Positions 5,946 through 50,845 of a stretch of DNA of 64,000 nucleotides are shown piece by piece. The translations under genes and the position numbers were made by a program. Source of the stretch: Lyophyllum atratum. Taxonomy: Eukaryota > Basidiomycota > Agaricomycetes > Agaricales > Lyophyllaceae. The notes beneath the pieces were generated by a model. It was not told the DNA's origin. It worked only from the letters and a program-made list of their open reading frames with translations, and ran no database searches. The first letter of the stretch is position 1, and each line of letters starts with the position of its first letter. Location: positions 2,914,001-2,978,000 of the forward strand of contig JACGCN010000002.1 in assembly GCA_014905825.1 (NCBI GenBank), given 5' to 3'.

Positions 5946-10805
<4,860 letters not shown>

Positions 10806-30414: not shown

Positions 30415-33400
30415 TTACCAAACCAAATTCATCGGCGCCGCCATAAACCCCCCCGCCTGCACCGACCCCGCACTCCCCAAACTCATCGCAACCGCCCTCC
30501 TCTTCTCCTCCCACGCCCTCAACGCCCTCAACAGCTGCACGATCTTATCGCGCTTCCCCTGCCTCACATCATTAATACTAACACTCCCCATCTTCACCTC
30601 GTTCTCGAGGAGGAAGTCGAACAGCTGGAACAGCCCATCGAGTTTATCGTCCGTGGGACCTTGCGGGAAGGCGGAGTCGGGGACGGGGGGCGAGGTGGGG
30701 CGGCCTTTGATGGACTCGGCGATGCGCAGGAGGGCGAGGCCGCCGCATAGGGAGCTGGTGGGGTCGCGGATCTGGAGCGACATGGGGAGGTGCGAGTTTG
30801 CCCATTCGATTAGAGCCTTGTCTTCAGCTGAGTTCGAGAAGGACTGTTCCAAAGTCTTGAGTTGAATACACGTCTGGCAACAAGAAATGGGACTTACGGC
30901 ACGACTGGCGCTCTGTCTCCGCATCTCCCTCGAAGGCCGAGCAGGCGCAGGCGCAGACGCTCTGGGCGTAGACATCGCCGACCCATTCCCATTCATCCCT
31001 TCCCCGTCCGGGGCCACAACCTCGTTACTGAAGAACGACTCCAGCCTTGTCCTCTCCTCCTTACTCTCATTCGACGACGGCAGCCCCATCAGAATCCTCG
31101 CATCCCGACTCGACAGCTGATTCGTGTTCTCGCGGCGCAGCGCCTTCTGCGTCGCGTCGCGCGCGGTCGGGGAGGGCGGGCGGGGGGCAGGGTTCATGGC
31201 TTGTGCTACCATCAGGGGGATGGTGGGTATGTTGCATGAGGAGATGACCGGTTCTATCCATCGTTGTTAGGGTTGAATTAGACGGGTGTGGAGAGTGGGG
31301 GGACGTACTGGTATAATCCCGCCCGATGGTGGCTTTCATGATGGCCTTCATCCAATCGCGGATAGCAGTCTTCTCGTCCGAGCTGAAATAATGCGTCCTA
31401 TCATTGTCGTGTTCGATCCGGAACCCATACCGCCCCGGGTTCACATTCTCGTCCACCGTGACCTTGTACCCCACGATATTGATGTACCCTTTAATCTTCG
31501 TTTCCTATGCCACACACACACACGTTAGCCAGGCCCGAAGAAAGAGAAAGAGAAGCGCAACGTACCGAATTGCTATTACTCCTCAAACAATACAAATGCG
31601 CCCCCTTCAGCACAAAATACCTCAGCTTCCAGCTATTATACCGGTCCCCCTTCTTCCTCATCCACCCCCTATGATCGCTCTCCCCAATCTGCTCCAATAT
31701 ACTCTGCCCCTGCTTAATCGGGCTCCCAATCGCAATCACCGCACCACCAACAACCCCCGCACTGTTCCTGTTGGCATCAGTAGGAGGCGCCGGCGCGGAC
31801 GTGGTGCGCTTGCGCAGCAGGGTCGGGTCCCGCGGCGTCTCCTTGGCGACGAGGACGGGCGACGTCGTGTCGATGCCTTTACCCGCCTTCGGTTCCTTGA
31901 CATGCTTCGGCGTCCCATTCAACATACTCGGGCTAAGCGAAAGATGCGACCCCGCCGACGCCTTCCTGCTACTCCCACCACTCCCCAGCCTCGAAAACAT
32001 CGATCCCGATCCCGACCCCTTCTCCGTAGTACTCGCCTCTTCACTCGCACTAATTCACAAAGAAAAAGTTGAGCTCAGTGTAGGATGAACTTCAATTGAT
32101 ATCGAGAAAGCTAACGAACTTGGGATATTTCGGCGGCGGCTTGCGGCTCTTCCCCCCCAGCGTCCCTGTGAACGTGCCCCCGAAGATGCTCAGTCTCTCC
32201 CCGCCGCCGCCGCTGCTCTTGCCCCCGTCCAAGCTCTTCTTCGACCGCGCGTGGCGCACGCTCAATGCGTCTTTATCTTTGTCCTTCTCCCTGTTCTTGT
32301 CCTTGACCTTCTCGGGGATGGTGGGAGACGCGATGACAGAGCCCTCCTTCGAGTGTCGCGAGTTGGCCGAAGAGTCGACTTTGGAGGAGGACGACTCGTG
32401 GGAGCGCCCGAAGAGACGCCGGCGCATGCTTTTGGTGTGCGTGGCTTCGCCCTGTTCAGTTGTCAGCATAATCGACAATTTTAAATCGGAAAGGGAGAGA
32501 CGTACCTCGCTTGCAACCCCCCGATCCTCCTCCTCCTCCTCCTCCTCCTCAGCAACATCAGAAACAGCCTTAGCAGACTCCTTCAACGCCCCATCGCTCG
32601 GCGAGAGCATCAAATACGCCGGTCTATCCTTCTACCCCCCCCAAAAAAAAAAAACATCAGAAACTACTTCAACCCCCAAAAAAAAGCAAGAAAAAGAAAA
32701 GGTACGCACGGATCCCTTCCCATTCATAGCAGGCGCCGACACCGACATCCCCAGCCCCTCCGACTCCGGCATCATCAACCTATCCTGCCCCTGCCCCTGC
32801 CCCTGCTGCCCCTGATGCACGTTGTACCCCCCTCCAAACCCCTGATACTCCCCCCCACTCTCTCCGGCCCCACCCGCCCCACCATTCCCATTCCCATACC
32901 CGTACGTGCCCGGGTACGAGTGGTGCGAATGCGACGTCAACGACTGGTGCCTCGAGTGACTTTGGGACTGACTGAGAGGTGAGTGCGGCGCGAGAGAAAG
33001 GGAGGGGGATGGGTGGTGATCGGAGTAGATGATAGAAGGCGGCCGGCGGAGGTCGGTGATGGCATTAGCGATGCGCATGCGTTTCCCGAAGGCGGGGATG
33101 CCGAGTTCGGTCTTGAGGAGGGTGACGTCGAGTTCGAGGAGGACGTCGCCTGTTATTTCTTGTTCTGCACGCAGGTCAGACTATAGTAATAAAGGGCATG
33201 GATGTGTACGTACCGGTGAACTTGTCGCAGACGTCGGAATCGAACCCTTTACTCTTGAGCCAATCTACCACGTCCTCGACGGACCACTCCGCCGGAATCA
33301 CCTTTAGATTCAACTCCTTCTTCTCCTTCTCCTTCTCCTTCGCCTGCTCCTCCACAACCTTCGCCTGCTCCTCCACCAGCGTCGTCTGCGTCAGAGGAGG

Positions 33401-34792
33401 CTGCGACATAGCAGAAGCCGACACCGTAGGTGCCGACCCGACACTATTATGCTTCGACGCCGCCTGCGGGAGCATCCCGTAGAACGAGCCCGTCGGGGAT
33501 GGAAGCGCAATGAGGGACTCCCGGTATACTGCGTTGTTGCTGTTCCGCTTGGGCTCTGGGAGATTAATCAGGACTGGTGGATCGGGCTCCTGAGCCGGTG
33601 CGTCTGTGGTGGTGACAGTGGGTGGCTGGAAGATGGGGAAGGACATGCGTGTGGCGGTGGCTGTCTGCGCTTCGGACTCGTCCCGCTCAGGGAGTAAGAC
33701 GTGCGTGGAGTCCGCACCGCCACTCGCGCGCTTGACTGTATTACCCTCGCTCCCCAGCTCCTTCATGTGCTGCACCCCCGGGGGCGAACCCGCACGATCC
33801 CCGTCCGTCTCCACATCCTCATCCTCCTCCAGGATATACGGGTGCTCCCTCTCCCTCAGCACCACACCCGAATGCCCATGCCCCATATACTCCTCCTCCC
33901 CCTCACTCTCATCGCTCATCTCCACCTCAATCGGCGGCCTCCGATCCCAATCCCGATTCGCGCCCCCACCCCCACCCCCACCCGACATCATCATCGCCTC
34001 GAGCTTCTCCGCCTCCGCCACCGCCCTCCTCGCCTTCTCCGCCAACTTCGTCCTTGCACCTTTATGCCAGCTCTCCCCTACCTCGGGGCGGTCGATATCG
34101 CTCATATCGAAGTCGGTGTCGGTGTCGGCGTCGCCGTCGGTGTGCGTGTGTGTGGAGCTGGCGAAGCTGAAGTTGCTCCGCGCCTCGCCGTCGGGGCGGG
34201 CACGCCCCAGCTGCTCGATGGCGTGCTGTACGTCGGTCATGGTGGCTTTCATCACCTCGTCGCCGCTGGACACCGTACGGCGGTGGGTGGTCGCGGCCGA
34301 TGAGTCTGTGTCCGTCTCGTGCCCTGCGGGGGCTTGGGTTTGGGTTTGGGGTGTGGGCGACAGGATGGGGGGAGATTCGAATTCGGACTCTTCCTCGTGG
34401 AGGGCTTGGAGAAAGGGTTTGGGGGCGGCGTCTGAGGGGGCTAGTTCGGTGGTGCTGGAGGAGGTGGAGGAGGAGGGTAAGACTGTGTCTGCGGATGGGA
34501 CGGGTGCGGTGTAGCTCTGTGGGAATAGACCTATTTTGCCTGCGAGGTTGCGGCCCTGTGGATTCAGAGTAGATGATGAGTTGAGGGGTTTAAGCTTAAG
34601 CATGGAGGAGACGATGCATGCATGGCTCGCGTGGCATGAATGAATGAATGAATAAACGTAACGTACTTGCCACCACCCGTCACTATACATATCATCCTTC
34701 TCGATGACTTCTATCCGTTCGCCCGCATGGAACGAGACTTCATCCTCGTGTTCGGGCAGGAAGTCGTGTAGTGCGTAGACGTATTCGGGCAT
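30415..34792 (-). CDS. BOI1: Boi1/Boi2-type polarity protein (SH3-SAM-PH)
   Basis: Scaffold protein acting at sites of polarised growth, by homology with yeast Boi1/Boi2 and fission yeast Pob1. The ATG at 34792 gives MPEYVYALHDFLPEHEDEVS, FHAGERIEVIEKDDMYSDGW, WQ|GRNLAGKIGLFPQSY, an SH3 domain cut by an intron near 34670-34560. A long acidic, Ser/Pro-rich linker with a coiled-coil-like segment (KLAEKARRAVAEAEKLEAMM) follows. The SAM domain begins LKVIPAEWSVEDVVDWLKSK, GFDSDVCDKFT and continues in the exon near 33180-33050 (KRMRIANAITDLRR). After more low-complexity sequence comes the PH domain: GWMRKKGDRYNSWKLRYFVL, KGAHLYCLRSNSNS, then GYKVTVDENVNPGRYGFRIE and the helix KTAIRDWMKAIMKATIG. 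The C-terminal exons hold predicted helices (KVLEQSFSNSAEDKALIEW-like) and the stop at 30415. The yeast proteins bind Bem1, Cdc42 and the exocyst; whether this one does is inferred. Confidence 0.9.
32520..32552. repeat. (TCC)n microsatellite in polarity gene
   Basis: A run of about ten TCC triplets, encoding a Glu run on the minus strand. It is a slippage-prone tract inside the coding exon of the SH3-SAM-PH gene. Confidence 0.85.
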
Positions 34793-35231
34793 CACCTCAG
34801 GCCCTGTGAGGTGGTGCTGATGAGAGATGGAAGCAAGTTGAAGGAAGGTGGTTCGTTGGAAAGAAAAGAAAAAAAAGTGGGATCAGGGTGTCAGTAGGGT
34901 GCGCAGAGTAAGATGTAGTGCAGAGTAGCAATCAGGCAACGTTGGAATAGGATCCACGTCCAACGATCTGACGGCACAAATAATCTTCTTGCTCAGTCAG
35001 CAATTTATTCACGTGGTCCGACCCCACTGATTTCTGTCACTCCAGCAGCATGGACAACGGCTGTCAGTGATAGGAGATAAAGCTATAGGATAAAGCACCA
35101 TGCAAGGACGAACAATGATCAACGTTAGTATAACTACTGCACAACACAAATCTGCAATATATACGCAAAACTATCAATTCATCCCAAGCGAAATCGTATA
35201 CATGTGGCAAGGGGCGAAGATTTGCAAGTCA
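34793..35231. other. Upstream region of SH3-SAM-PH gene and 3' end of SAP18
   Basis: About 440 bp, with a purine-rich stretch near 34860-34880. It must hold the promoter of the polarity gene and the 3' UTR of SAP18. No exon is seen. Confidence 0.5.
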
Positions 35232-36323
35232 TCAGTCATACCGCCTCCTCCTCGGTGGAGGCGGCGGGCTGCGCGAACGCGAATTCGAACGGGAGCGAGA
35301 TCGTCTTCCCCCACCCCCACCACCCCGCCCACCCCTCCCACCCGCGCCCTCTCCCCAACCACGCCTAGCCCTCGGAGGAGGCGTATCCCCACCCCGTCTC
35401 GGGGGCGGCACCCGCCTCTCCTCCCTACCCACATCCCTATCCCTCTCCCTTCCAAATTCCCCTCCACCCCGTCCACCCCTGCCCCTCGACCCCCCAGCCG
35501 GCGGCGCACCCGAATCACCCCTCCAATGCCCCCCACCCCTCCCAGCCCCAGGCCCAGCAGACGGCGCCACCGACCCGCCCCATCCACTATCCCCCCCGCC
35601 CGCCCCCCTCCCCGCCCCGCCCCCGCTCCTCCACCCATTCGCAGGCGGCGCGCCCCCACCCGCGCCCCCCGCCGACCCCTTAATCGAAATCTCCGTCGGC
35701 ACCGTAATGCTCTTCGGCAACAACACCGCCACAAGCAAATAATCCCCCGGCACGAACCTCAGCTCATCCAACGTCCTCTCCTCCTTCTCCCTCTCACTCC
35801 GCTCCCCCCCTTCCCCCTCTTCCAAAAAATCGCTCTCGCGGAGTCGTGGGGCGGTGAGGTCGAGCGCCCCGGGCTCGCCGAGGACGTCGCGGGAGTACAC
35901 CATCCCGAGGTCTTTTTGGGCGAAGCGGCCTTTGGAGGCGGAGTCGGCGTAGACGGTGCGGAAGGAGAAGCGCGCGAGGGGGTGGCGGTATTCGGGGGTG
36001 AGCGGGGCGGTGTTGCGCAGGGTGGTTAGGACTTCGCGGAGGGTCGCGTCTTTCCTGCGTACCACACCCCTCTTTTTAGTACTTAAAACGTGTTTAGGAA
36101 AAGGAGGGAACGCACCAGGTGAAGAGCTGCTGCTCGTCGGTGGTGGGGAGGCTGCTGTCTTCGAAGAGGCTGAGGCGGTGGAAGCTGCCGATTTTCACGA
36201 ATGTCCTGATGAGAAAGGGCGCTGTCTGGACTACATTCAGTATATGCAGGTCGTCCTCCAAGAGAATAAGCTGACCTTCTCCCTGGAGACCACAGGCTGG
36301 CCTGCTGGCAATGTCGTGTCCAT
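35232..36323 (-). CDS. SAP18: SAP18, Sin3-associated/ASAP complex subunit, with extended RGG/RS tail
   Basis: SAP18 is a ubiquitin-fold subunit of the Sin3-HDAC repressor and of the ASAP/PSAP splicing complexes. Three exons splice cleanly. The ATG at 36323 gives MDTTLPAGQPVVSREK, joined (acceptor TCCAG) to TAPFLIRTFVKIGSFHRLSL, FEDSSLPTTDEQQLFTW, joined (GTGCGT to CGCAG) to KDATLREVLTTLRNTAPLTP, HPLARFSFRTVYADSASKGR and FAQKDLGMVYSRD. The fold ends with LDELRFVPGDYLLVAVLLPK. After it the protein continues for about 130 residues of Gly/Arg/Ser/Pro repeats (GGGAGRGAGGG, RGRGGRGGGE) and finishes with SRSRSNSRSRSPPPPPRRRR, TGA at 35232. The tail resembles RNA-binding RGG and SR proteins. Human SAP18 lacks such a tail as far as I know. 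Confidence 0.92.
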
Positions 36324-36632
36324 CGCGGTTCCAACGAAAAGGTATATCTTACGTAATCTGGACTCTGATTCTGTTTGAACATGTGTGTGGCCATGGACCC
36401 AGCTCACCAGGACGCGGCAAGCTGGAAGGATTAAGGCGACGGTACTAGGCAGTAATGGACTACATAGGAATTAAGTCACTGACCGACTACTTATATATAG
36501 TAAAGGTCCACGCATCATGTAACTTGATACAAGTCATCAGCATTCGTGATGGTATACGTATAGACAGCACGGGTAACACATAGTCCATAAGTAATAACAT
36601 ACCACCAACTCAAATATATCCACCCCCCCCAC
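36324..36632. other. Spacer between SAP18 start and NADAR gene stop
   Basis: 309 bp, tandem minus-strand genes. Presumed SAP18 promoter; no exon seen. Confidence 0.5.
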
Positions 36633-38306
36633 TCACCTCTCCCTATCCCCCCTCACCCTCCCCCTAACCCTCTCCACCACCCTCCCCAACTCATTCCCCC
36701 CCGCCTCCCCACCCCCACCCACCCCAATCCCCCAATACGAGTCCGACGGATCATCATACACAAGCCTTGCGTCGCCCGTGCTCAAGAGCAGGTCCCCCAG
36801 GCGAGCGTGCTGGCAGAACTTGAGGTAGACGACCATCTCCATCTACACACAAAACACATCAGTAACTCAACGACTCAAGACAAGGACAGGCTTGGAATGG
36901 AACGGAACTTACCATCTCCAAATACGCTACCCCATACCCCACACTCTGACACCCCGCATTCTCCGCCGACACCTCATACACATCCGCCGTATCCTCGCAC
37001 CTCCTAATAGTCTCCGCGATATCAGGGCGCAGCGGCATGAACTTCAGCGCCTCCAGCAGATGCGTCGCGGTGGGGTACTCCGCCCGCTCGTACGACACGT
37101 TGTAAGGGGAGTGGTTCAGGAAGGGGGAGTAGTCTGTGTCTTGGTTGAAGTATATGGGCGGGAGGTCGGGGTCCGGGGCGGTATGTATGGACGCGCTTCC
37201 TCGTTGGGAGTGGACAGCCGAGTGTGGGGTAACACTCCCCCGTCGGGAGTGAACAGCAGAGTGTGGGGTACTAGGCGGTGGTGGCGCAGGGGACGAAGGG
37301 GCGGGATCGGGGGCAGGCGTAGGTGGCGCCGACACATGATCCCCAAAATGGCCCGAACCCTGCGGCACGAACACATACCTCACCTCCCCCGCCTCCTTCC
37401 TCACCTCCTTCTTCCTCCTTAACACACTAAACAATCCCTTCTTCAGCGGCTTACTCTCCGGCCCCTTCACGATGATCGTTTGCGCAACGGCCGGCAGCGT
37501 AGGGAGGGCCTTGGGCGCGAGGAGATGCTTATAGGGCGAGCTGGCGTATATGTCCCGAGGTGGGTCTGGGAGAGGGTTGGGAGTACGTGTTCGTGTTTGG
37601 GGTTGGACGGGAGGAGGAGGAGGAGGCGCGGGTGTAGGTGGTAGGAGGGGACTGGGGGGTGGTTGGATTGGGGAGGCTTGGATTTGCACGGAAGCGTGCC
37701 GGCTATGGGTCGAGTGCGACGGTGAAGGAGTCGCTGGGGGTGCGTTTGGACTGCTGCCCAAGTCCGGGTGCGGTGCAGGTTGTGGTGGGGCGTATATTTG
37801 AGGTCGGGAGGCAGCTCCCGCGGAGGATCCCGCCGTCGAAGGTATGTCTGGCTGGTCTGAATCCTCTTGATGAACCGCCGCAGTCTGCGTAGATGCTATA
37901 ATTCCCCTCCAAAATCAACTACCCGAACCAGCCCTCAAGCAGCAACACACATACCTTCAACAGGCCCACTCCTCGCCGTCGAAAACGTCAAAGTAGCAGT
38001 TGGCCCCCTCTTCCTCGTTTTCCTTCTCTTCTTCGGGCGTGAGTCCTGCGTCGGCTCCGGGGGCCATTGAAGCTGAGGCTGAGGCATCTGGAGAGCGTAT
38101 TGAGGCATGATGTATCCCGGGGGTATCACTGGTCCTCCATGGGCTGGTATGAACCCGGGGTGGGGGTGCGGGTAGCCGTAGTTTGGGGGTGGTGGGGGGG
38201 GCCAGTAGTGAGGTGGAAAAGTGGGGTCGTAGGGATAGTAGGCTTTTGGGGCGTGGAGGGGGTGCGGACGACGCTTCGACTTTGCTTTGGAGGATGATAT
38301 ACCCAT
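36633..38306 (-). CDS. NADAR (YbiA/DUF1768-type) domain protein with Pro-rich N-terminus
   Basis: Three exons. The ATG at 38306 gives MGISSSKAKSKRRPHPLHAP, whose Gly2 and Ser/Lys pattern fits N-myristoylation. A Pro/Tyr-rich segment follows (PPHYWPPPPPPNYGYPHPHP). The intron near 37960-37900 ends at an ATAG acceptor and joins ASTQTAAVHQEDSDQP. A long Pro/Ser-rich linker leads to the NADAR domain: IYFNQDTDYSPFLNHSPYNV, SYERAEYPTATHLLEALKFM, PLRPDIAETIRR. A second intron (GTAAGT near 36912 to GTAG near 36846) joins MEMVVYLKFCQHARLGDLLL, LVYDDPSDSYWGIG and GNELGRVVERVRGR, ending with TGA at 36633. The domain family acts on ADP-ribose or N-glycosidic intermediates, as in YbiA and the riboflavin pathway. 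The linker contains duplicated TPHSAVHSRRGSV-type repeats. A substrate cannot be assigned. Confidence 0.85.
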
Positions 38307-38879
38307 GGAGATTTGACTGAGTAGGATGACTCCTGAATATTACAAGGACGTCGTGTGGGATCGTGCAGGTTCAAAGATGACCGATATTCAACGGTAATAA
38401 ATTGAGGGTAATGGGTGTAAGCCCTCTGGCCTTGAAGTCTTCCCGGTTTTCGTAAAGGTCGTCGCAGAGTATGGTCAGTTCAAGAACCTTCGTGGTTGGG
38501 TCGTGAAGTATGGGATAGCGCAAGCGATGCGGTGGCTGAGGAGGAGGGAGTTCCGAATTGCCAAATTCAACTTGCCGGAGTCACGATCACGCTGAAGACA
38601 CGTGCTAGGCCAGACGCGTCAAGTGACCTATAATTAGTCGTGACGCGACTTTGACTCGAGCCGTCGTCTGCACTCTGGACAGTTCGGAGTCAGTTCGGAG
38701 TTTTCATTTCTTCATGTATGATGACTAGAATCCGATTTTTGAAAAAAAAAAATTGCCTTGGGCATCCTTCTAAACTGCTCCCGGATGAAACATCTGGAAC
38801 GCCTGGGGTTTCGGACGAAGAAACCTAGAGGAACCTCACGCCCCTGCAACATCATCGCGAATTATGGCTGACTTCGCAT
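38307..38879. other. Spacer upstream of NADAR gene
   Basis: About 570 bp between two minus-strand genes. It includes an A-run at 38741-38751 and short GC-rich direct repeats (CAGTTCGGAGT twice near 38688-38702). No exon is seen. Confidence 0.45.
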
Positions 38880-41800
38880 TTAACGAGGAGTCCACTTCAG
38901 CGCTTGTGAAGGCACCATCTGTAGTTGTACTCCAGACGCCACTAATCGATGATGCTCGATGTCCCAGATCTTCAACAATGTACAATACTATGTGAGCATA
39001 CCACGGCCCGCTTTTGATGAAATGTAGAACACACTTCGCTGCGACACGACCCGATGCCCTCGCCAGTCGACATGCTAGTATTCACGATCCTGAGCTTTGC
39101 ACCCCTGATCAAGGGCTCGCATTAGTTGATACGTCGTATCACAACGGCCTGATGAACGACTGACAGTTTGGCCGGATGGTGGAACACTGTGTTGATGGCT
39201 TGGGAAACGCCCACTTGGAAATCTCTGCCCTCGGCTGCGTTGAGGACTGCCAGGGCACAAACCGAGCACCTGCATTTCGGAGGGTTAGTGATGTGCTAGG
39301 CTCGGCCCAAAGCCTGAAGCCGGCCGAGGACGGGCCGCTTTGGGCCGAGCCGTGACGAGCCGTCTGGCAGGCCTCTGACGGCCTGCGGCTCAGGCTCATA
39401 ATTTGTGAAGCCTGAAGCCCCGTCCTGGGCCGCGGCTTTTGGTGGCTGGGATATATTTTTTTGCGCCAGATCTAAGAACTGTACAGTAGTAGAACAACAA
39501 ATAAATAATTGTATGCCTCGCGTTATTTGGCCGTGTTACAATCGGACAACGCAATGGCGGCACCGCGGCCCAATCGTGCAAAAAATCCCTCAACCAAACT
39601 CGTTGCAGACAACTCGGAGCCACCTCTGTTGACTTCACATCGCCAGAACATTGCCAATGCAGAAGCTGCTGCTGCAGCTGCTGCAGCTCTTGCTGCTGCC
39701 TCCACTGCTGCGGGACCCGAACCTCCGGTTGTGCAGCGTGTGCCTGAAACCTCGACATCATCCAACCCCGCGACCTCGACATCATCCAACCACGCGTTCT
39801 CGGCTACGCCTCGCGTAGATCTAACAACATCTCAGCGGACGAGCTCAACATCAGCTCTACAACTGGACTCAACGACTTCAACCAACAAGCGTAAAGACAA
39901 TCCAGGTACGGTCTGGTCATCATCTATTCTTCATGTTTCACTCACAACGGGCATACTAGGAGAGACAGATGGCGAAGTTGACAAGACGGGCTTGTACAAG
40001 GACGTCGACATCTTGGATATCGAAGATTCTGATGAAGAAAAACGCCGCACCGAGAACAAGAACCCGAGAAAAGATCTGGACCATTTCTTCGAAGCCTCAA
40101 AGGCCCCGAGCGGAGGTGACAAAAATCCACGGCGGTTGTGCAAGCTCTGCAAGTGAGTTCCTGAACATAATTAGCAATTATCAGAGCTCTTACGGCTCGT
40201 TTTCTATTCAGGGCTGGAAAAGGATGTCCGGTACAGCAGGTCCACATTGTCGATCAACACTCGACACTTCGTCGACACCTGGCATCAAAGCACAAGGTAT
40301 GATTCTCACGGAGACTGCGACACGACGTCGGCCGCTACTTATGACAGTTATGCAGGGCCCGTATCATAAATGGTGTAAGGAAACCGGGTTCATTTCAATG
40401 CTGGCCGAGGATTCGAAACAACGGCGACTCGAGGCGGCGGCAAGTGTAACGGCAGAACAAACGAAGGTCGACTCGCATTTCCGCACACTGGAGCCGGGCG
40501 AAAAGCCAGTGCCGTATTCCGACGAGTTGTTCAAAGAGGCGGCTATCCAGTGGTTGGTTGAGACTGATCAGGTAAGCTATGCCAATGTCTCAAGTATCGA
40601 ACTCACGTCGCGTTCACTAGCCAATTCAAGCCTTCGAACACCCGTCTTTCAAGAACATGATTGACGTGGCGGCCCGAGCGACACGGGGTGTCACCTTGCC
40701 TAACCGTAAACAAACGCGGGAGGCCATCATGGAATTATTCAAGCAGCAAATGCGAGCACTACGGGACCGCTTACAGGTGAGTATCGTGCTATTCCATACG
40801 GTGATTCAAGTACTAATGTGATGCTTGTCTTCAACAGAGTAAAGCTGTCACGGGCGATATCAGCCTGACTTGCGATGCGTGGCAGGCATCGAACGCTGAT
40901 AGCTACTTCGCAGTCACCGGGCACTGGATCGAGGAACGCACTCCTGGAAAATGGACCCTCGAACATGGACTTTTCGGGTTCATGCGCATGAATACTGCGC
41001 ACAACGGGAAGCGACTTGGCCAAGCCTTATTCAAGATATGCGATCGTCTTGGGATCGCACACCGGGTACGTGACTACGTCCTCTTTACAACAAGAAGCAT
41101 TAACTGAAAATTTCCTTCAGATCGGACACGTTACTTGCGACAACGCTGCGAATAACAACACGATGATGAGTGAGTTTGCAGTCCGATATAAGGAACGAAC
41201 CGGCCGCAAATTTGATGTGCGTAATCGACATATTCGGTGAGTCGACCCACTCACCTTCCGCTTGCCTGTCGTTAACATTAACTGCTGTCCCGTCCGCAGG
41301 TGCTTGGCCCACATCATAAACCTCGCCACCCAGGCCCTCATATCAACGCGAAGCAAGACAAAATATTTCAATCCTCACGAAATTGAAGAACATCTCCCCG
41401 ACACGGATGCGGCTGAACGAGACGAGTTGGGCCTCGTTCGTGCCATCGTAGTCAAGGTAATGAGTGCTTTGACTCTTATAATTCTAAACTTAATGCTTAT
41501 CTCAATTAGGAGCGTTCGTCTTCGCAACGAAAAGACTTATTCAAGGCCATACAAGTACGAGATGGAACCAAATCTGCGGAGAAGAAGCGGCCGCCGGTTC
41601 AGCTGCTCCTCGATATGAAGGTCCGCTGGGGATCATCATACATCATGCTCCACCGTGCCGAGTCTCTTAGAATGGTAGGTCATAATCCGCCCATTGATAT
41701 AGTTGTATCTGACTGCAATTTTCATAGCATGTCGATACATTTGTGTATGAGCTCGGTCTCAAGGCCGAGAGCATCAACAAACGCGCAAAGATAGATGCAT

Positions 41801-43615
41801 TGAAGCTTACCAATGAAGAATGGGGAAGAGTCGGCATATTTTGCTCGCTTCTTAGTGTGAGTCTTTTTGAATACTATCTATCCGCCTATCATAAATATTC
41901 TGCTCAGCATGCGGACAAGGCTCAACAAGCATTTTCATCTGTTCGTGTACCGACACTCTTTAATGCTGTCCCTGCGGTCGAGGCCCTGCATTCGGCGTGG
42001 CATAACCGATCAATCAAAGCGAAATATGCACCTTTTCGTGATGCATTGGACGCCGCTTGCGCAAAGCTCGGAGAGTACTACGAGAAGACTGCTGATTCGA
42101 ATGCTCACATCCTTGCCATGGGTATGTCGTACTCCTAGCTGTCATGTAGGTAGCATGTTAACGTGCTCATATCCTTAGTCCTCCATCCTACGCGAAAGAT
42201 GGGTCATTTCAAGAAGCACTGGGACAAGGATCTTCAAGATGACGTTCGTGATTTGGTCCTCAAAGTGGTAAGTTGAATGCTGTTCGTACCTTCCTCTATT
42301 GAAGATGACATCTCCTCCACTGCAGTTCAAAGAACGTTACCAAGCCTTGCATGCTTCAACATCGACGTCTGCCCAGCCGCCACGCAAAAAACGGAGAACA
42401 GCTGGCGTTCTATTGCGCGCAAACAACACCGACTCCGACAGCTCGGACTCTGATGTTGACACACCAAGTGATCCGACAAAGCCCTGGATGACTGAGTTTC
42501 AACGGTACCTCGACACAAACGAGATTTTACCGGAAGAAATGACTGTCGTTGAATGGTGGGGTGTGAGTACATCTATGGACTGCTCAAGATGTCGCGGTGG
42601 GCTGATCACATGTCTCTTTGAAGATGAATGCTCATCGGTATCCCACTTGGGCGTCCCTTGGGCGTGACTACCTCGCTGTTATGGCATCGTCAGTCTCGAG
42701 TGAGCGTGCCTTCTCATCCGCAGGGATCACGATTAGCAAGCGCCGCAATCGCTTGAAAGGTGATATTGTTGAAGCGTTACAATGCCTCAAATGCATGTAT
42801 CATAACAACCTTATCTTTCGGGAGGTAGATACTTGTGCGGATGAGGAGCAGTTTTTGGAGGAGGATAGCTCGGCAGCTGATGGTGAAACGGGTTTCTCGT
42901 GGGACCAGCTCCTCGAGGATGATGCTGATGATGTCGCAGACTCGGACATAGATATGGCGGGTTTAGACATAGACGTTTACTAGTTGATATCTGTAGTAGC
43001 TAGCCACACCCTCCCCCCTCAGAAATGTAGGCAGAAGCCGCGGCCTGAGCCCAAGCCGGGCCCAAGCCGGCCTGAAGCCTACATGACGGCTCAGGCTTAT
43101 AATTTAACGAGCCCAAGCCTGCCAAAGACGAGCCCAAGACCAGGCTTTTGGGCCGGGCCGGGCCTAGCACATCACTACGGAGGGTGCGTAAAGTGAGTTT
43201 ATGCAGCAGCTTCAGGTCTCCGCTGATTGACGTAGACAGGCAACGCACTCATCAATCAAAAAAACTGCACATCCATGTTGCATGTTCCCTGTCCCACCAA
43301 GCATGTCTGGCATACATAATGAGTGGTTAATCACGAACTTCTGTCAAGACCGCACCAACCTGATGTCACGTCAATCTCACACACCACCCTTCCTTCGATC
43401 CTGCACGGGTCCTCTGGGTTCTTCACAAGAGAAACCTCTACCACCCTCACCCTGCTCGCAACTGACTTAGCGAAACTGGCTCTACGGGCACGGAATACGG
43501 CAAGCCATTTCAGAGGCACTTCCTTGATTTCGCGCGGGGCGTTACCCGCAACTTGAGAAATCACATCATCGGGGAAGTCCGTACTGAGAATGCTCCGGGC
43601 AGCGGTAGAGACCAT
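38880..43615 (-). CDS. Hotdog-fold thioesterase-superfamily protein, paralog 3 (intron carries a hAT transposon)
   Basis: The exons lie on both sides of a transposon. The ATG at 43615 opens MVSTAARSILSTDFPDDVIS, then CRIEGRVVCEIDVTS. Exon 2 is DMLGGTGNMQHGCAVFLIDE, ending at 43248 on a GTGCGT donor. Exon 3 starts at 39269 after ATGCAG with CSVCALAVLNAAEGRDFQVG, VSQAINTVFHHPAKL. Exon 4 has IVNTSMSTGEGIGSCRSE, and the last exon reads IWDIEHHRLVASGVQLQMVP up to the TAA at 38880. Intron positions match the paralogs. The donor-acceptor phases around the last exon (GAAG|GTGTGT) do not fit exactly, so that junction may be damaged. The HGG motif reads QHG. Removing the transposon and one target duplication leaves a normal 78-nt intron; the present one is 3,978 nt (39270-43247). 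Expression depends on splicing out the insertion. Confidence 0.72.
39278..39285. repeat. Left 8-bp target-site duplication of hAT
   Basis: CGGAGGGT immediately precedes the terminal TAGTGATG. The same eight bases follow the right terminus at 43178-43185. Confidence 0.95.
39299..39351. repeat. Subterminal 15-bp inverted repeat in hAT left end
   Basis: GGCTCGGCCCAAAGC (39299-39313) and its exact complement GCTTTGGGCCGAGCC (39337-39351) could form a hairpin with a 23-base loop. Related GGCCCAAGCC motifs recur at the right end. Transposases of this superfamily bind such subterminal motifs, so it is a candidate binding site. Confidence 0.8.
39554..42983 (+). CDS. hAT transposase (BED finger, RNase H-like core, hAT dimerisation domain)
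   Basis: About ten exons form an open reading frame from the ATG at 39554 to the TAG at 42983. The N-terminus is Ala/Ser/Thr-rich. A BED-type zinc finger follows: RRLCKLC, then after a short intron STLRRHLASKH (C-x2-C ... H-x4-H). The RNase H-like core shows the first acidic residue in GDISLTCDAWQASNADSYFA, the second in IGHVTCDNAANNNTMMSEFA, and CLAHIINLATQAL between core strands. RVPTLFNAVPAVEALHSAWH precedes the C-terminal part. The hAT dimerisation region is WASLGRDYLAVMASSVSSER, AFSSAGITISKRRNRL. The tail is acidic. I see no forced stop or frameshift, so the element may be autonomous. It catalyses cut-and-paste transposition of hAT ends. Confidence 0.88.
43178..43185. repeat. Right 8-bp target-site duplication of hAT
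   Basis: CGGAGGGT, identical to the left copy at 39278-39285, directly after the terminal CATCACTA. Confidence 0.95.
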
Positions 43616-43902
43616 GGTCGTAAAGACAGATTCAGGACGCCTGGCCGTGCCTGAGGGTGCGATAGAATATAAAGTATGGAGGAGACAAGAGGATACATGA
43701 TATCCAGCCGGTTAGGAGAAACCCGACCCGGTGTAGGAAGCGGCAAAGCCCTGCAAAGCCACGTGTACCGCCACACTCAACTTCCCGCTTCGATCACTAA
43801 TTAAGTTGAAAATCGCTTCCGCCCTTTCCAGTACAGTTACCATGATCACCTTTAAAACTGCCATGCTCAACGGTGCTGATTCATAGCGCCCCACGCAGAC
43901 CC
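43616..43902. promoter_or_regulatory. Bidirectional promoter between thioesterase paralogs 3 and 4
   Basis: Paralog 3 starts leftward at 43615 and paralog 4 rightward at 43903, so this 287-bp spacer must drive both. No TATA box or operator can be named by eye. Confidence 0.5.
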
Positions 43903-44694
43903 ATGGCCAATCGCATGCCCAATGTCAAGGCCACCACGGACGTCTCGCATATTAGAGGCAATGTGAGCGATGACGAGAAGCGCCTCGCCCTGAAGATCTT
44001 GGCCCATTTCGTGAGCACCCGGGAGAAGTCGTATGGGGCTGACGTTGGCCAGCGGTTAAAGATGGTTGAGGTGAATGTGTGGGGGAGGGACAGCCCAGGG
44101 GCCTACGGGGAAACCGTATTCGAGGTCGAGGTTGAGAAAGGTGTGTAGCTCGCTCAAATCCATCGCCGCAAAATAATCGAATTGGCGTTCTCCCTTTCCT
44201 TACTTGCCTACAGATATGTGCAACATATTTGGGACATTGCATGGAGCGTGTGCGGCTTATATGATCGATCCGTGCGTCTCTGCCGTTCACAGTTTGGAGC
44301 AACTAAGCGGACCTTACGCAGATGTTCTGTGTCGTCTCTAATTGTACTTGGAAATGCGACGGGCGTCGATGGTACCGGTGTCTCTCAATCCATGAATTTA
44401 ATGTGGCATCAGCCTGCTCATCTGTATGTGATTTGCGACCGTTCAACCTCCATAGAGACTGATGATTCCATATAGAGGAATGAAGTTGCGCATCGTATCA
44501 ACGTCTGTATTCATCCATGGTCGAGTTCGTTCCGCGCGTTGCGAGGTAGGTCGTACCCTGATGATCGAAACGGGTGCCTCGCTTTCTGACGATCACGATA
44601 GATGTGGAATGGTGATCAGCTATGTGTATCTGCGGTTCATTCTACCGTCAATCCCTGGGCGAATGAAAAGATGACAGCGAAAGGCAAACTGTGA
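43903..44694 (+). CDS. Hotdog-fold thioesterase-superfamily protein, paralog 4
   Basis: Five exons. The ATG at 43903 gives MANRMPNVKATTDVSHIRGN, then RLKMVEVNVWGRDSPGAYGE, TVFEVEVEKG at a GTGTGT donor. Exon 2 reads DMCNIFGTLHGACAAYMIDP, exon 3 CSVSSLIVLGNATGVDGTGV, SQSMNLMWHQPAHL, exon 4 GMKLRIVSTSVFIHGRVRSA with RCE at its end, and exon 5 MWNGDQLCVSAVHSTVNPWA, NEKMTAKGKL, ending with TGA at 44694. All introns sit at the same places as in the other paralogs. The HGG motif is HGA. It is the most diverged of the four copies but has an open frame and good splice sites. The closest neighbour is paralog 3, head to head. A thioesterase-like or non-catalytic hotdog role is inferred from the family only. 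Confidence 0.78.
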
Positions 44695-44989
44695 AGCTTT
44701 GGGACCTCTAGTCATTGTCTAATATCCGTTCTTTTGTATTAGAAGGTAAGGCCCGTTCTCTCTCGCTGGTAAACCCTCAGCTTACACAACGATAAGCTTG
44801 CTCTTGTTCCTTCATTTGTATCATACCTACCTGTACAAGCTCTAATCCTGATTCTGTATACGATGATGCTGGTATAAGCGCCAATATCAAGAGCTTCCAG
44901 CAGCCTTTGAAGCTCCAGCCTAGGCATCGCGAAAGCAAGGTGAGATTCCAATCAATTGCTGAACCCGGTGCTACTGCAGGTCCAACGAC

Positions 44990-45883
44990 CTATGCCTGGG
45001 TGGGCAAGGATTGCAGGTAGGCGCGCAGTTTCTCTAAGGCTTTGTATCGGTGTGACATCTTGTTCTTCTCTTCAGAAGGCATTTCTGCGTATCTGTGTGG
45101 CAAAATGGTCAATGATCCATAGAGGAGAACGCAAATATAGGACCAACGTGAATCCTGTCCCATCAGGTTCGAAAACAGCATCCCATCCAAAGATCTTCGG
45201 GCCCCTCGCAGGCACGATCGACCCGTCTGTACGCCCCTCAAACACAATCGGTTCAGTGCCTGCGTTCGATGATCAGCGATAGGTTATAGTTATCACTGCA
45301 AATCAGGGACTCCTTGTACCTGGTCCAGCAGAATAGGCAAATGTACAGAGAGCCCATGCGGCTTTGGTCGGGAAGCCTACGAGGAGGTTGTTCAGGCCTT
45401 CATGCCCTACTTCTGCCATAAAGTGCTTGATGTAAGGTCCAGGCAGACCATTGAGTGCGGCATAGCATAGCGCTGTGTCCTCGGTTATACACGCGGCACC
45501 TGTCTATCCGGTCGAGGGAATTTAGAACAGGGCCATGGAGTCACGGATAGATTGGCTGCCTAGGCAACTTACAAGTTCAGCAGCTCTTCGACACTTATCT
45601 TTCGCGACTTCTTGCGTCGTTCCCTGGATTTCCGGAACTGTGAATTATAAAGTAGTGATTTTGTGTGTCAGATCGCGCACAGTTTCGAGAATCGAGGCTA
45701 GGCTACTTGCTATCAAGGCTTTGCGAGTCTATCTCGATCGGGTGGCCTCCTTCTGAAAGAATAGCCTTCACTTCTTTGAGCTTGTTCACGTTTCCCGTGA
45801 CAAAAACTGCCAACAGGGTATATGAGTGATCGATGCGAGGAGATCGTGAGCCACTAGAAGTGCTCACTGAGGGGTTTGGACAT
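44990..45883 (-). CDS. HAM1: Inosine triphosphate pyrophosphatase (HAM1/ITPA)
   Basis: Hydrolyses ITP, dITP and XTP to monophosphates, keeping deaminated purines out of DNA and RNA. The ATG at 45883 gives MSKPL, spliced to [20 protein letters not shown], with the conserved TxNxxKxxE motif in its [11 protein letters not shown] form. Later exons read [20 protein letters not shown], then [20 protein letters not shown] with PGPYIKHF, then [20 protein letters not shown], then [20 protein letters not shown] with [12 protein letters not shown], and [20 protein letters not shown] with [16 protein letters not shown] at 44990. The second intron has a GC donor (GAT A|GCAAGT); all others are GT. The acceptor before TGAAC is GATAG, six bases upstream of an apparent ACAG. 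Length and motifs fit a functional enzyme. Confidence 0.93.
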
Positions 45884-46013
45884 GATGACTCCAAGTCCGA
45901 AGTGGTGGCTAAAGATAGATTACCTTAAATTTCCAAGTCCGGTCGACGCGGTCGGAGTATAGAATTAGTTGATTTGCTCTCCGCCCTCCGACTACCATCA
46001 ACATCTGACTGGT
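45884..46013. promoter_or_regulatory. HAM1 upstream region
   Basis: Short spacer between the HAM1 start and the orphan fragment; presumed HAM1 promoter, no motif recognised. Confidence 0.3.
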
Positions 46014-46196
46014 ATGGAATCTTCCTCGTATTCTCTCGAATCGAGTATCACCTCTTCAACTGCGTTTACAACCACTACTTCCCCAGGAAGCACAATTCCA
46101 GGCCGTGGAGCTCTTTCTGGGAAGGCCATTCTAGCTCTATGCAAGGCCGGACCTGTTAGCTATAGTACTACACCAGGAGTCCCTTTTTCTCTATAA
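46014..46196 (+). pseudogene. Truncated copy of the GxxSGKxILAL gene fragment
   Basis: The ATG at 46014 opens MESSSYSLESSITSSTAFTT, TTSPGSTIPGRGALSGKAIL, ALCKA, after which similarity to the 13.4-kb copy stops and the frame soon ends. The match covers the Ser/Thr-rich lead and the GxxSGKxILAL block. The sequence is homologous to 13410-13530, about 32 kb away. It stands about 200 bp upstream of the NLR gene, and could be an unspliced first exon or a relic of a duplicated gene. The function is unknown. Confidence 0.45.
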
Positions 46197-46404
46197 TCTT
46201 ACCCGAAGGGCTCGATCTATTTCGTTCGGCAAGACCAAGGTACTTCAGCTCAATCGATAAAATCCGAATGAGGAAGTGAAGACGTCTATCATTGCTCACG
46301 AGACCCTTGATTACACACGGATGATACACATGGCCGATGGCAGATAGGCGCACCAGCTTCTGACCTGGACTACTTGGACTACTCCGAGTCGTTCTGTGTT
46401 AGCC

Positions 46405-49400
46405 ATGTCTCTAGGCAGTCCTGCCTCTTGGTGGTCAAAGCGCTCAAGTTTGCGCGGCAGAGAGAAGAAAAAACAGGCGAGTCTATTATACTCGAGTTTT
46501 CAAAGGCTTGGAATGATCATTGATGACGTTGAATACTCTTTAGTCGTCTACTGAAGTAGCTGAGCAAAAGCAAGACAAGGACGATCTAGGAAATCCGACT
46601 CGGGGTGAATATGTCTGTGAAGCAGCAAAGGAGTTTCTGAAGGTGATGGAGGCTGTGGCCCAGGGTATCCCTGTTCCTGGAGTCGGTGCAATTGTGAAGA
46701 TTGCTTTAAATCTCATCAAAATGTGTGAGGTACAATTGAAGTCGCTGCCTTCATATGTGATATTTCTCATTTTTCCCCATCTAGGACAGTCACGCGACTT
46801 TGGAACGAGCAGAAGAACTAAAATTGCGAATCAAAACGTTGGTCGCCGTCTTAGTTGACGAATTGAAGGGCAAAAAGGCGGACGAGATACAAGAAAAGCT
46901 CAAGGCTGATATCTTGTCATTAGAGAAGTGAGAGCCTTTCTAAGTTCACCTCTAATGCCACGGCGAATTTTCTGCTTCCAGGGACTTGCTGTATATTCAA
47001 AAGAAACTCGAGGAGATTTTGTCACAGTCCCCTGCCCTTGTGATACTGTTCAAAAGCTTCAATGAAGAGAAAGTCCAGAAGTGCGTTGAGCGCTTACATA
47101 CTTCATTGGAACGCTTCAATGTACTGTTGCACACTTGAGGCGTCCCGACATGTTGACCAACCTGAACTTTCTGCTTCCAGCTAACACGCGAAATAAACCA
47201 TGCCAACCTTCTCCACCGCCTAGAAAAACAGATTCTCCAATTCGACGCGAGCCAACGAGAGCAACGAGAGCAACTCGAAAGCATTCAATTCGGGATAGAT
47301 GAGATAAAGCTTCTCCTCGGCGATCGGCCGGATGGTAGCTCGACGTCGCAATCTCACTCGCGGGCTACAATGCCTGCTCCTACGAGCCTCTTCTACGGGC
47401 GAGATCACGTCGTCGCCGATCTCGTGGCGAACCTAACCAATGTGACGGAAGGTAAGAAGAGTCCGCGAATTTGTCTTTTAGGTCCTGGTGGAATGGGCAA
47501 AACGTCAACCGCCCTCGCTGCGATGGCACATCCCGATACCAAGAAGTGTTTTCCTGACACTAATCAGGCCTGGGTGCCGTGCGTCATGGCGACATCAATT
47601 CCACTTTTCCTCGACACACTATCCCAGTCGTTGGGTATTACAAAAACGTCTGTAAACCCCCGTAGTGACATTCTTAACGAGCTCAAATCATCTCCACCAC
47701 TGGTCCTCCTACTCGATAACTTTGAAACACCGTGGAACATAGACGGGGGCCGAGCAGATACAGAGCGGATTCTTCGCAATATTGAACAACTCCCCCACAT
47801 CACCCTCTTCCTGACAATGCGATCCTCCGCCCCGCCCTGCAAGGGGATCCGCTGGCACGCCGTTGATCTCAAGGCTGTCGATGCCGAGGCTGCGCGCCAA
47901 ATCTATTCCGAAATATACCCTGCGGGGGGCACGGATCCGCAGCTGCCACAGCTACTCCAACTGGTGGGATATTTGCCGCTGGCGATCACATTGATCGCGT
48001 CCTTCGGACATTTCACGTCGCTTGGAGCTGAAGACCTTATGAAGCAGTACAATGTCACAGGTACTGCCATGCTTGGACAAGGCTCTGATGCGGAGAACAG
48101 TATGGACATCTGCATTAGCCTCTCCGTTGACAGTCCGCCTATGAAGCGACATCCCGAGGCATTCGAGCTTCTCGCGATCCTCGCCATGTTGCCCGTCGGA
48201 ACCACAGCCAATATGTTGATCACCTGGTGGGCACGTGAGGTTCGGAACGTCGCAGGCGCCCTCCAGGTCCTCGGGGAAACATCCCTAGTTGAACGACAGG
48301 ATACCACTTTCGTTGTCCTTCCTGTCATTCAACGATATGTCCTAGATGCTGCCCGCTTCCCTAGCCATGTGCGCACATCCATGGTTGAATCGGCGTGCGA
48401 TTTTTTGGGAAAACATAAATCTTCTCCTGGAGATGCTTCGTACAAGGAAGACACCAAGGCAATTGCTATAGAGGAAAGCAATCTGCAAGAAATTCTCATG
48501 GGGGCAACGACGCCCACACCTCCTTTGATTGATGCGCTTCTGGTGCTGGCACGGCACCAGCGACACACGAGACCACGCACCGACGTTATTGAACATGCCT
48601 TCAAGCTTGTGCGCCAGCTGAAGGACCGCCCCGACATCGTTGGGAGAACTATGGAGTGTTACGGCCTCATTTTCTCTACCTTCATTCGCGACAATGAAGC
48701 CTTGGAACAGTTCACTCTCGCGCGCGAAGTATATCTCTCGATTCCTGACACCAGTAAAGCTGCCATGTGTTTATTACACCAGCTCGAGGTGCACAACCAC
48801 TCGACTCACCCGGTTGTCGCAGAAAATAAGGCACTCATCGAAAAGGCACAAGCTGAATTTGAAGCTGCTCGTGATACTCACGGCACTGCACTCTGTCTAT
48901 ATCATTTAGGCACCTTGGCTTGGCAGAACGCCACATCGTGGCCTTCACCTGCTGAAGAAGTTGCACATGCCGCCGACCTACTTGACCGTGCCAGGGCAAT
49001 GTTTGATGGGCCGCTCCACATCGCCAATTGCTCCTCTGAGCTTGCCAAAAACTATTACTGGGCAGCACAGTATGAGGAGGCACAAACTCAGGCTGTATCT
49101 GCGGCGCAACAATACCAGGAAATTGGATTCTATGACACAGACCCGTCCATTATGCACGCGCGCTCATGTCTTGCCCGGCGTGACTATGATGGCGGTCTCT
49201 TTGTGGTGATTCCAATGCTTGAAACGGCCAAGTCGTACGGCGTGTCCCTTACGATTGCTATGATACTGGAGCTGATAGGACTTTTTTGGGCATGTATGGG
49301 GAAGAAAGCTGATGCACGAGGTGCTTTCGAGGAATCCTTGCACTATTCATCCACAGTATCAGATGCGGGCGTGACGCATCGTGCTCGTTTCTTTTTGAGG

Positions 49401-49490
49401 AAATTGTTGGATCCAGGGACGATCCCCGATAGCGAAGAAGAGAGGTATATTGAAATCATATACCCTTTTGATATTGTAGGTATGCTTTAA
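46405..49490 (+). CDS. NLR protein: helical N-terminus, NB-ARC-type NTPase, TPR-like repeats
   Basis: Nucleotide-binding receptor of the kind linked to fungal self/non-self recognition. The ATG at 46405 gives MSLGSPASWWSKRSSLRGRE, then a GC-donor intron (CAG|GCGAGT) to SSTEVAEQKQDKDDLGNPTR. The N-terminal region (about 240 residues, four introns) is helical and resembles HeLo/MLKL-like bundles: EFLKVMEAVAQGIPVPGVGA, IVKIALNLIKMCE, LERAEELKLRIKTLVAVLVD. The NTPase has Walker A LLGPGGMGKTSTALAAMAHP and Walker B PPLVLLLDNFETPW, then TMRSSAP and GYLPLAITLIASFG (GLPL-like). After a winged-helix-like region come TPR-like repeats (MCLLHQLEVHNHSTHPVVAE, ALCLYHLGTLAWQNATSW, ELAKNYYWAAQYEEAQTQAV, ELIGLFWACMGKKADARGAF). 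It is about 945 residues and looks intact. The trigger and the type of cell death, if any, are inferred only from the family. Confidence 0.85.
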
Positions 49491-49889
49491 TTACTTTACT
49501 TAGATTGTAGGTACGTGGTAGGCGCCTCATAATTATTGCGTCGACAAGATGCTGTGGTCCAACCCATGTCGCGTCAGGACCCCTTTTCTCTCTCATGAAT
49601 CGTCATCCCCGGATGTCGCTTCATCTGCTTGGACAAGCTATCACCCAGCTAAATTCGTCAATCTGCTCATTGCATAGCTCCCTAGCTGCCTTTGAAACTC
49701 TCTTTGAACCCTGGAACATCCTCAATAGCCTGGATTGTAGCCCAATGACCTCGTTATTTGTTGCGCTTCTTCCCGACCCCCTAAACGCAATACCTTAGCC
49801 GTCGCCCCTGTTTGAACTTGAGAAGAGTCCGCTCCAAACGTCTTGAACACTCTTCGTCCTGTTCAGCTTAGCTACCACCAATTGCTCCC
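49491..49889. other. Intergenic, no supported gene
   Basis: About 400 bp after the NLR stop with no plausible exon. Confidence 0.45.
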
Positions 49890-50422
49890 ATGGCCATGCC
49901 CACAAGCGCACTAATAACGCCCTCCGATGCGGAAGAAAGGACTTCAAATAACTCCAACGACGAGTGGCCCTGCCCAAGGCCCGATCAGGAGGAGGACGCT
50001 GACTGGGATTGGCCCCCTAAAATAGACCCAAGCGTCAGCGACGACTACAATGGCCACGGGCACGGCGCACAAGCTAAGATAGGTTCGCTTCAGCCTCGGC
50101 CGCCCATTCTGCCGCGTCACTGACCCAGAGGTATATAGACTTCATCTCACATATCATCGCGCATGCGCCAGCACCGGGGTGCGGATTCTGCGACGTCGAT
50201 TGCGTTTCCACGATCGAGTACGCGATACCTGTGTGGACATTGCAGGTGATGGTACCACGCACGGAGGGTTTCTTCTGGGAAGAATATGGCAATGCTGCTA
50301 GGTACCCTGATGGTGTGGGACATATCTGTTTGCGCTGTTATCGAAGGGTGCTTCAGGAGCAGCTGGAACGCCCACAGTGGGGCAACTCTATCGGTATTAA
50401 TGGATGGGAGTCAGTAGAGTAG
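49890..50422 (+). CDS. Small Cys-rich hypothetical protein
   Basis: The ATG at 49890 gives MAMPTSALITPSDAEERTSN followed by an acidic Trp-containing stretch (EDADWDWPPKIDPS). A second part reads RYIDFISHIIAHAPAPGCGF, CDVDCVSTIEYAIPVWTLQV, then EGFFWEEYGNAARYPDGVGH, ICLRCYRRVLQEQLERPQWG and GWESVE before the stop at 50422. C-x2-C-x3-C and a later C-x2-C suggest a small metal-binding module. The junction between the parts (around 50083-50130) is unresolved: a GTTCGC donor with a CCCAG acceptor does not keep the frame, whereas an earlier donor (GTCAGC near 50033) would. I do not recognise the family. Confidence 0.4.
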
Positions 50423-50845
50423 TCCTGAATGTAGTCGTGACATATATAGGCCGGTGATTCGTTCTCGTCGTTCGTCTGCGTATCCACGGGAGGTCCCTAG
50501 ACTTCAGATGGATAACGCGATGCCAATAATACAGCGGTCATGATGTTTGCATTGTCCTGCTAGCTATTTAAACAGCAGACAGCACTCTAATAAACGCAGA
50601 TGAGAACAGTTTAATACATGGTCATTACGTAGGTCGTGAAAAGTACCAGCTCGAAAGTCTGTATGGCATCTGTGAGCCAAGGTTAAGGAACATATCAGCC
50701 CCTGAATTGTATAAGCAACGGATATAGGTGTCTACACTCAGAATTATCAGTATAAGAAACAATAGCAACATATGCAAACGTGCTTGACCTCCTGATCTTT
50801 GAGCAAATCAATGACAAGAGTAGCATCGCTTGGGGACTCCAAAGC
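50423..50845. other. Convergent 3' spacer before TAF11
   Basis: About 420 bp, no exon seen; presumably the 3' UTRs of the small protein gene and of TAF11. Confidence 0.45.

What the first reader, a model, noticed from the sequence alone, without database searches (positions are those of the whole stretch)
38880..43615. Intact hAT transposon nested antisense in an intron of a thioesterase gene
Perfect 8-bp duplications (CGGAGGGT), 16-bp perfect termini and a readable transposase show a young insertion. Its place, 8 bp from the acceptor side of a normally 78-nt intron at a position shared by the paralogs, means the host gene could survive by splicing out a 3,978-nt intron, and the transposase is a nested gene on the opposite strand. 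This is a test case for tolerance of giant introns in a compact fungal genome.
Basis: partly seen in the sequence, partly recalled or inferred. Interest (0 to 1): 0.78.

Follow-up and report, generated by a model that had tools for sequence, protein, structure and literature searches.

The report
Young mushroom hAT transposon in intron
An intact, apparently recent "cut-and-paste" transposon sits inside an intron of a small enzyme-like gene in one of two copies of a mushroom's genome; it is an ordinary kind of insertion, but its ends place splicing-like signals at both junctions, so whether the host gene still works can be tested directly.

Summary
A 3,892-bp hAT element (39286-43177) has an intact-looking 14-exon, 898-aa transposase, termini matching in 22 of 23 bases and perfect 8-bp duplications. 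It lies antisense in intron 2 of a 5-exon hotdog-thioesterase-like gene (43615-38878, minus). The same assembly holds a syntenic contig (C85) with the empty site and one CGGAGGGT, so the insertion is derived and best read as polymorphic between haplotypes. No second full-length copy was found. The genome is very probably Lyophyllum atratum. Alleles differ at 30 codons synonymously and 6 nonsynonymously, so the gene was under constraint; but C85 has its own 737-bp repeat in exon 3, so neither known allele is uninterrupted. The giant-intron idea is only partly supported. The insertion parts the native branch-like sites from the acceptor. The upstream element edge supplies a TAG, making a normal-sized 74-nt intron and a truncated protein; the downstream edge creates CTAAC 15 nt before the native acceptor, so removal of 3,979 nt is possible but not favoured. 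The one L. atratum protein among 44 hits is exactly the 116-aa intron-retention product. New member of a known kind; RNA reads would decide the splicing outcome.

The parts
39286..43177 (+). hAT element, 3,892 bp, orientation by its transposase
   Evidence: termini and flanking duplications; only full-length match in the own-genome search, whose counts are lower bounds
39278..39285 (+). target-site duplication CGGAGGGT, acceptor side of the host intron
   Evidence: single copy at the empty site C85:424775-424782
43178..43185 (+). target-site duplication CGGAGGGT, donor side of the host intron
39286..39308 (+). left terminal inverted repeat
   Evidence: 22 of 23 bases match the right end, first 16 identical
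43155..43177 (-). right terminal inverted repeat
39554..42983 (+). transposase gene, 14 exons, 13 GT-AG introns of 49-63 nt, 898 aa, hand-built model
   Evidence: Pfam PF05699 1.9e-18; Hermes transposase 4e-15; best-scoring relative 53% identity over the searched part
43360..43615 (-). host gene exon 1
43249..43306 (-). host gene exon 2 (ends ...FLIDE)
39270..43248 (-). host intron 2, 3,979 nt with the element; 79 nt in the empty allele
39165..39269 (-). host gene exon 3 (CSVCALAV...)
39035..39104 (-). host gene exon 4
38878..38969 (-). host gene exon 5 with stop codon
43188..43197 (-). native branch-site candidates CTCAC (43197-43193) and TTTAC (43192-43188), upstream of the element on the host strand
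   Evidence: consensus matches only
43175..43177 (-). TAG, the first three bases of the element on the host strand: candidate cryptic acceptor of a 74-nt intron 43248-43175
   Evidence: inference from sequence
39284..39288 (-). CTAAC created at the element/target junction (CTA from the element, AC from the duplication), 15 nt before the native acceptor
   Evidence: inference from sequence

Best explanation
A single intact, probably autonomous hAT transposon inserted by ordinary cut-and-paste into intron 2 of one allele of a hotdog-thioesterase-like gene of an agaric (very probably Lyophyllum atratum, both nuclear haplotypes assembled). Shown from sequence: element anatomy, empty site on the syntenic contig, intact coding sequence of the host allele apart from the giant intron. 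Inferred: the insertion happened after the two haplotypes parted; on the host transcript the short-intron splicing machinery pairs the donor with the native branch-like sites and the TAG at the element's edge (74-nt intron) or leaves the intron in, so most transcripts end in the element (162 aa) or in the intron (116 aa). A minority could use the junction-made CTAAC and the native acceptor to remove all 3,979 nt.
For: Element. Empty site with one target copy and no footprint. Collinear second contig over window 23343-55753. No second full-length copy. Geometry of both junctions against 24 hand-built uninserted introns of 48-70 nt. Truncated products. The one L. atratum protein among 44 hits equals the intron-retention product letter for letter (116 of 116). 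A survey paper extends intron definition to basidiomycetes and says it works only below about 250 bp (PMC2397502, passages).
Against: No RNA data were available; the ranking of splice outcomes is inference. The 116-aa database model may be a limit of gene prediction, not a transcript. TAG is used less than CAG as acceptor here (7 against 15 of 24, 2 AAG). The created CTAAC is close to the branch consensus as I recall it, which favours the distal route somewhat; yet CTAAC itself is listed in none of the 24 introns, while CTCAC is in 3. Loss from C85 by precise excision is not excluded.
Confidence: 0.7

Rival explanations
1. One reading: the host gene is kept alive by efficient removal of the 3,979-nt intron, with the transposase as a tolerated nested antisense gene. 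The junction CTAAC (element CTA plus duplication AC) serves as the branch site in place of the displaced native ones.
For: Donor, native CAG acceptor and a YTNAY branch-like site 15 nt before it, with no AG between, are all in place; exons remain in frame.
Against: A closer acceptor (TAG, 74-nt intron) with the native branch-like sites comes first on the transcript; the one L. atratum protein among the hits is truncated; intron definition is said to work only below about 250 bp.
Confidence: 0.15
2. Pseudogenisation in progress: both haplotypes lost the gene independently (hAT in the intron on C64, a 737-bp repeat in exon 3 on C85), because the gene is dispensable, perhaps covered by paralogs.
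For: C85 carries the exonic insertion; no other close copy among 14 matches in the own genome, all on C64 or C85; paralogs near 18.4 and 19.6 kb.
Against: Codon differences between alleles are strongly biased to synonymous (30 against 6; NG86 dN 0.016, dS 0.267; YN00 0.018, 0.222), though 4 of the 6 changes fall in the last 7 codons; orthologs are kept in related species. Not exclusive of the best explanation.
Confidence: 0.12
3. An assembly artefact or misjoin places the element here.
For: None found.
Against: Perfect target duplication, exact empty site on another contig, flanks collinear on both sides.
Confidence: 0.02

Closest known systems
MarorhAT-10 of Marasmius oreades (PMC9674265, passages read)
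   Different: movement was observed there, with related nonautonomous families; here only presence/absence between two contigs is seen, the exact 16-base terminus occurs nowhere else in the genome, and the site is an intron
Putative AC transposases of Agaricomycetes, e.g. Hypsizygus marmoreus P0001
   Same: 53% identity over the searched residues 170-850; P0001 carries precomputed PF27041, PF27039 and PF05699
   Different: the DNA of that element (termini, target) was not examined
Maize Ds1 spliced as an intron (titles of Dennis 1988, Wessler 1991, Giroux 1994 seen in the reference list of PMC3260210; papers not read)
   Same: hAT-superfamily element whose ends affect splicing of the host transcript
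   Different: there, as I recall, small nonautonomous elements in exons are removed; here a full element lies inside an existing intron and the signals are a TAG and a branch-like site
ACOT13/THEM2 hotdog thioesterases (PDB 2f0x; Hypsizygus marmoreus 'Acyl-coenzyme A thioesterase 13' 71%)
   Same: host protein residues 74-176 align to the solved enzyme
   Different: weak match (E 2.7e-4); activity untested

Membership tests
hAT superfamily of DNA transposons | 8-bp target-site duplication | tested here: met
   perfect CGGAGGGT on both sides, single at the empty site; a full-length relative (60-69% identity) on C71 and C108 is flanked by TTTTGGAC on both sides
hAT superfamily of DNA transposons | short terminal inverted repeats | tested here: met
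   22 of 23 bases
hAT superfamily of DNA transposons | C-terminal dimerisation domain | tested here: met
   PF05699, 66.5 bits against a cut-off of 21.4; Hermes transposase 4e-15
hAT superfamily of DNA transposons | DDE catalytic residues | tested here: met
   D347, D417 and E806 invariant in 8 of 8 aligned proteins, 7 chosen from the 64 hits. That these are the triad is recalled from Hermes; one search aligns the region of E806 significantly, that of D347 only below significance, and that of D417 not at all
hAT superfamily of DNA transposons | BED-type zinc finger near the N terminus | tested here: inconclusive
   C178, C181, H204, H209 invariant in 8 of 8, but no Pfam zinc-finger hit at E 0.1
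hAT superfamily of DNA transposons | transposition activity | not testable with these tools
   presence/absence between two contigs only
hotdog acyl-CoA thioesterase (4HBT, ACOT13-like) | sequence match to the family model | tested here: inconclusive
   Pfam 4HBT 15.8 bits, below the cut-off 20.6, and 4HBT_3C 18 below 24.1; THEM2 structure 2f0x at 2.7e-4; named ACOT13 in Hypsizygus
hotdog acyl-CoA thioesterase (4HBT, ACOT13-like) | thioesterase activity | not testable with these tools
   no assay

The most novel reading that the evidence does not exclude
The ends of this hAT family act as portable splicing signals: whichever way the element lies, the host transcript meets TAG at the upstream edge (an acceptor) and CACTA at the downstream edge, completed to the branch-like CTAAY when the target begins with AY. 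An insertion near the 3' end of an intron then splits it into a short exonising route and a long self-removing route, so one insertion becomes a switch between a truncated and a full-length host protein.
Probability: 0.15. Interest if true: 0.6.

Novelty: new member of a known kind. Interest (0 to 1): 0.35.

Why it matters
Two natural alleles of one gene in one assembly, one with the site empty and one with an intact hAT element in the intron, give a clean test of how a short-intron genome handles a 50-fold intron expansion, and of whether hAT termini carry usable acceptor and branch signals. As a transposon it is ordinary: an autonomous hAT with a single copy in one nucleotype and new insertions has already been described in another agaric (PMC9674265, passages).

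Tried and rejected
Assembly artefact: rejected by the empty site and collinear flanks. High-copy young burst: rejected. One full-length copy was found, and the perfect 16-base terminus occurs only at its two ends; counts at up to 3 mismatches (182 forward, 176 reverse) do not exceed the reversed control (187, 184). C85 as a random paralog: unlikely, as it is collinear over window 23343-55753. Eight further pairs of places were compared, chosen because their hits looked alike or to tell polymerase loci apart: the full-length hAT relative (99.5%) and five other pairs (94-99%) matched over nearly the whole loci, 2 pairs, between different polymerase loci, did not match. An own-genome search for a polymerase domain gave one pair on C1/C133, one on C64/C131 and one locus on C24 without a partner, so the second haplotype is not complete or not everywhere separated.

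Literature: the listings of searches (20 of 70 papers listed; 15 of 34; 7 of 7; 12 of 387) showed no title on branch or acceptor signals in hAT termini of a fungus; one search (hAT, Lyophyllum, transposable element, genome) found 0 papers; one search (Lyophyllum atratum) found 7, none about this locus by its title; searches were for background on fungal introns; one search (YARNG) found one paper, where the motif is given for P elements, so my recalled use of it for hAT ends was not confirmed. These do not prove absence from print. I read passages of PMC2397502, PMC3260210, PMC9674265, PMC6710886 and PMC2820524; other papers only as listings.

The intron statistics rest on 24 hand-built introns plus the empty C85 intron, set by reading frame and GT/GC-AG ends without RNA. 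Three of 24 had no YTNAY site in the range looked at (tpase10, tpase12, par1_3) and 2 more had one only with an AG between (par1_1, par2_4). On re-reading, the donor of par2_2 was set two bases early; in phase that intron would be 52, not 54 nt, which changes no count given. The paralog at 43924 on the plus strand is my reading of translations and was not found by the protein search.

Full report
What is there. Bases 39286-43177 form a 3,892-bp element with termini matching in 22 of 23 bases (first 16 identical) and flanked by perfect CGGAGGGT copies. On the plus strand a hand-built 14-exon model (39554-42983) reads 898 aa without a stop. It matches the hAT dimerisation domain at 1.9e-18 and Hermes transposase at 4e-15. 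The protein search on residues 170-850 gave 64 proteins (only the 7,995 candidates sharing most words were scored); 56 of 64 bear an organism name, all of which I know as Agaricomycetes (recalled, not looked up). The best-scoring one has 53% identity over the whole searched part; higher identities come only with partial cover (55% over 81%, 54% over 75%, 84% over 9%). D347, D417 and E806, which I take from memory of Hermes to be the catalytic triad, are invariant in 8 of 8 aligned proteins.

The host gene. On the minus strand five exons (43615-38878) give a 192-aa protein. The family assignment is modest: Pfam thioesterase models score below their cut-offs, the THEM2 structure 2f0x is matched at 2.7e-4, and the protein search returned 44 proteins, among them Lyophyllum shimeji at 83% over 98%, Hypsizygus marmoreus 'Acyl-coenzyme A thioesterase 13' at 71% over 99%, and two short ones, Tricholomella constricta at 88% over 67% and Lyophyllum atratum at 98% over 57%.

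Which organism. The short Lyophyllum atratum protein P0069 (FPV67DRAFT_1473054, 116 aa) equals letter for letter what this allele would encode if intron 2 were kept; its source contig is 3,291,870 bases, and the window's contig is reported as 3,290,000, apparently rounded. So the window is very probably from that species' public assembly. C85's corresponding retained product differs from P0069.

The empty site. Searches of the own genome with each flank hit contig C85. There the two flanks meet with a single CGGAGGGT at 424775-424782 and no footprint. C85 is collinear with window 23343-55753 in pieces, most at 88-98% identity, one of 50 bases at 82% and one (53976-54459) at 75%, and other chosen places of the genome also come in two near-identical copies, so C85 is best read as the other haplotype. 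The insertion is therefore derived and, unless C85 lost it by precise excision, younger than the split of these alleles. It is not datable further. The element was found once at full length. The other 19 matches in the genome are pieces of 32 to 681 bases at 66-94% identity, those over 150 bases at most 80% (counts are lower bounds). They include an older full-length relative at 60-69% present on both C71 and C108 with an 8-bp TTTTGGAC duplication.

State of the host gene. Between the two alleles 36 of 192 codons differ, 30 synonymously and 6 not (NG86 dN 0.016, dS 0.267; YN00 0.018, 0.222), so the gene was under constraint; 4 of the 6 changes fall in the last 7 codons. Against an undisturbed function, C85 has a 737-bp repeat in exon 3 with a duplication of 6 bp and imperfect inverted ends of roughly 180 bp. 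Its family has six other near-full-length copies at 82-90% among 25 listed matches. Thus neither known allele is uninterrupted, and no third close copy was found (14 matches, all on C64 or C85; four of them are the two paralogs at 36-40%).

Splicing geometry. In the empty allele the intron is 79 nt with YTNAY sites 24 and 19 nt before the CAG. In 24 other hand-built introns (13 transposase, 3 host, 8 of two paralogs) lengths are 48-70 nt; 21 of 24 have a YTNAY site in range and 19 of 24 have one without an AG in between. The element inserted between the native sites and the acceptor. On the host strand the element starts with TAG, giving a 74-nt intron with the native sites 19 and 14 nt before its end. 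It ends with CACTA, and the duplication begins with AC, giving CTAAC 15 nt before the native CAG. The TAG is fixed by the terminus; the AC is luck (AY dinucleotides are 0.118 of the window over both strands). CTAAC itself is listed in none of the 24 introns, the native-type CTCAC in 3. Use of the TAG would give a 162-aa protein ending in the element at 43002; retention gives 116 aa. Because the 74-nt intron is complete long before the distal acceptor is transcribed, and a survey infers intron definition for basidiomycetes and says it works only for introns below about 250 bp (PMC2397502, passages), I rank truncation above giant-intron removal. This ranking is inference; no RNA was available.

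Known or new. An autonomous hAT with a single copy in one nucleotype, and its new insertions, are known from Marasmius oreades (PMC9674265, passages), and hAT elements that alter splicing are known from maize Ds1 (titles in a reference list). The finding is a new member of a known kind with a neat natural test.

Noticed in passing
C85 about 423946-424682 (locus L014 about 5947-6683), orthologous to window 39186-39192: The other haplotype has a 737-bp repeat with long imperfect inverted ends in exon 3 of the same gene; six other near-full-length copies lie elsewhere in the genome.
   Followed up: partly
window 33287-38670 and 43166-46017 against 46205-53973: Identity between the two haplotypes changes along the window: 88% and 91% around the host gene, 95.6-97.6% further right, 94.8% to the left at 23343-33286.
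   Followed up: no
window about 17700-18441 and 18820-19597, minus strand: Two tandem paralogs of the host gene with introns at the same place by my reading; one intron of the 18.4-kb copy appears to be GC-AG.
   Followed up: partly
window 43924-44700, plus strand: A divergently placed neighbour reads as a further thioesterase-like gene (translation); not found at E 1e-3 by the protein search.
   Followed up: no
window 53973-53976 against L015 7700-8227: C85 has about 530 extra bases here, part of which resembles window 29644-29771, a further haplotype-specific insertion.
   Followed up: no
window 47166-49490, plus strand: Long open frame whose sequence looks like an NTPase with repeats (NACHT/TPR-like by eye, no search done).
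   Followed up: no
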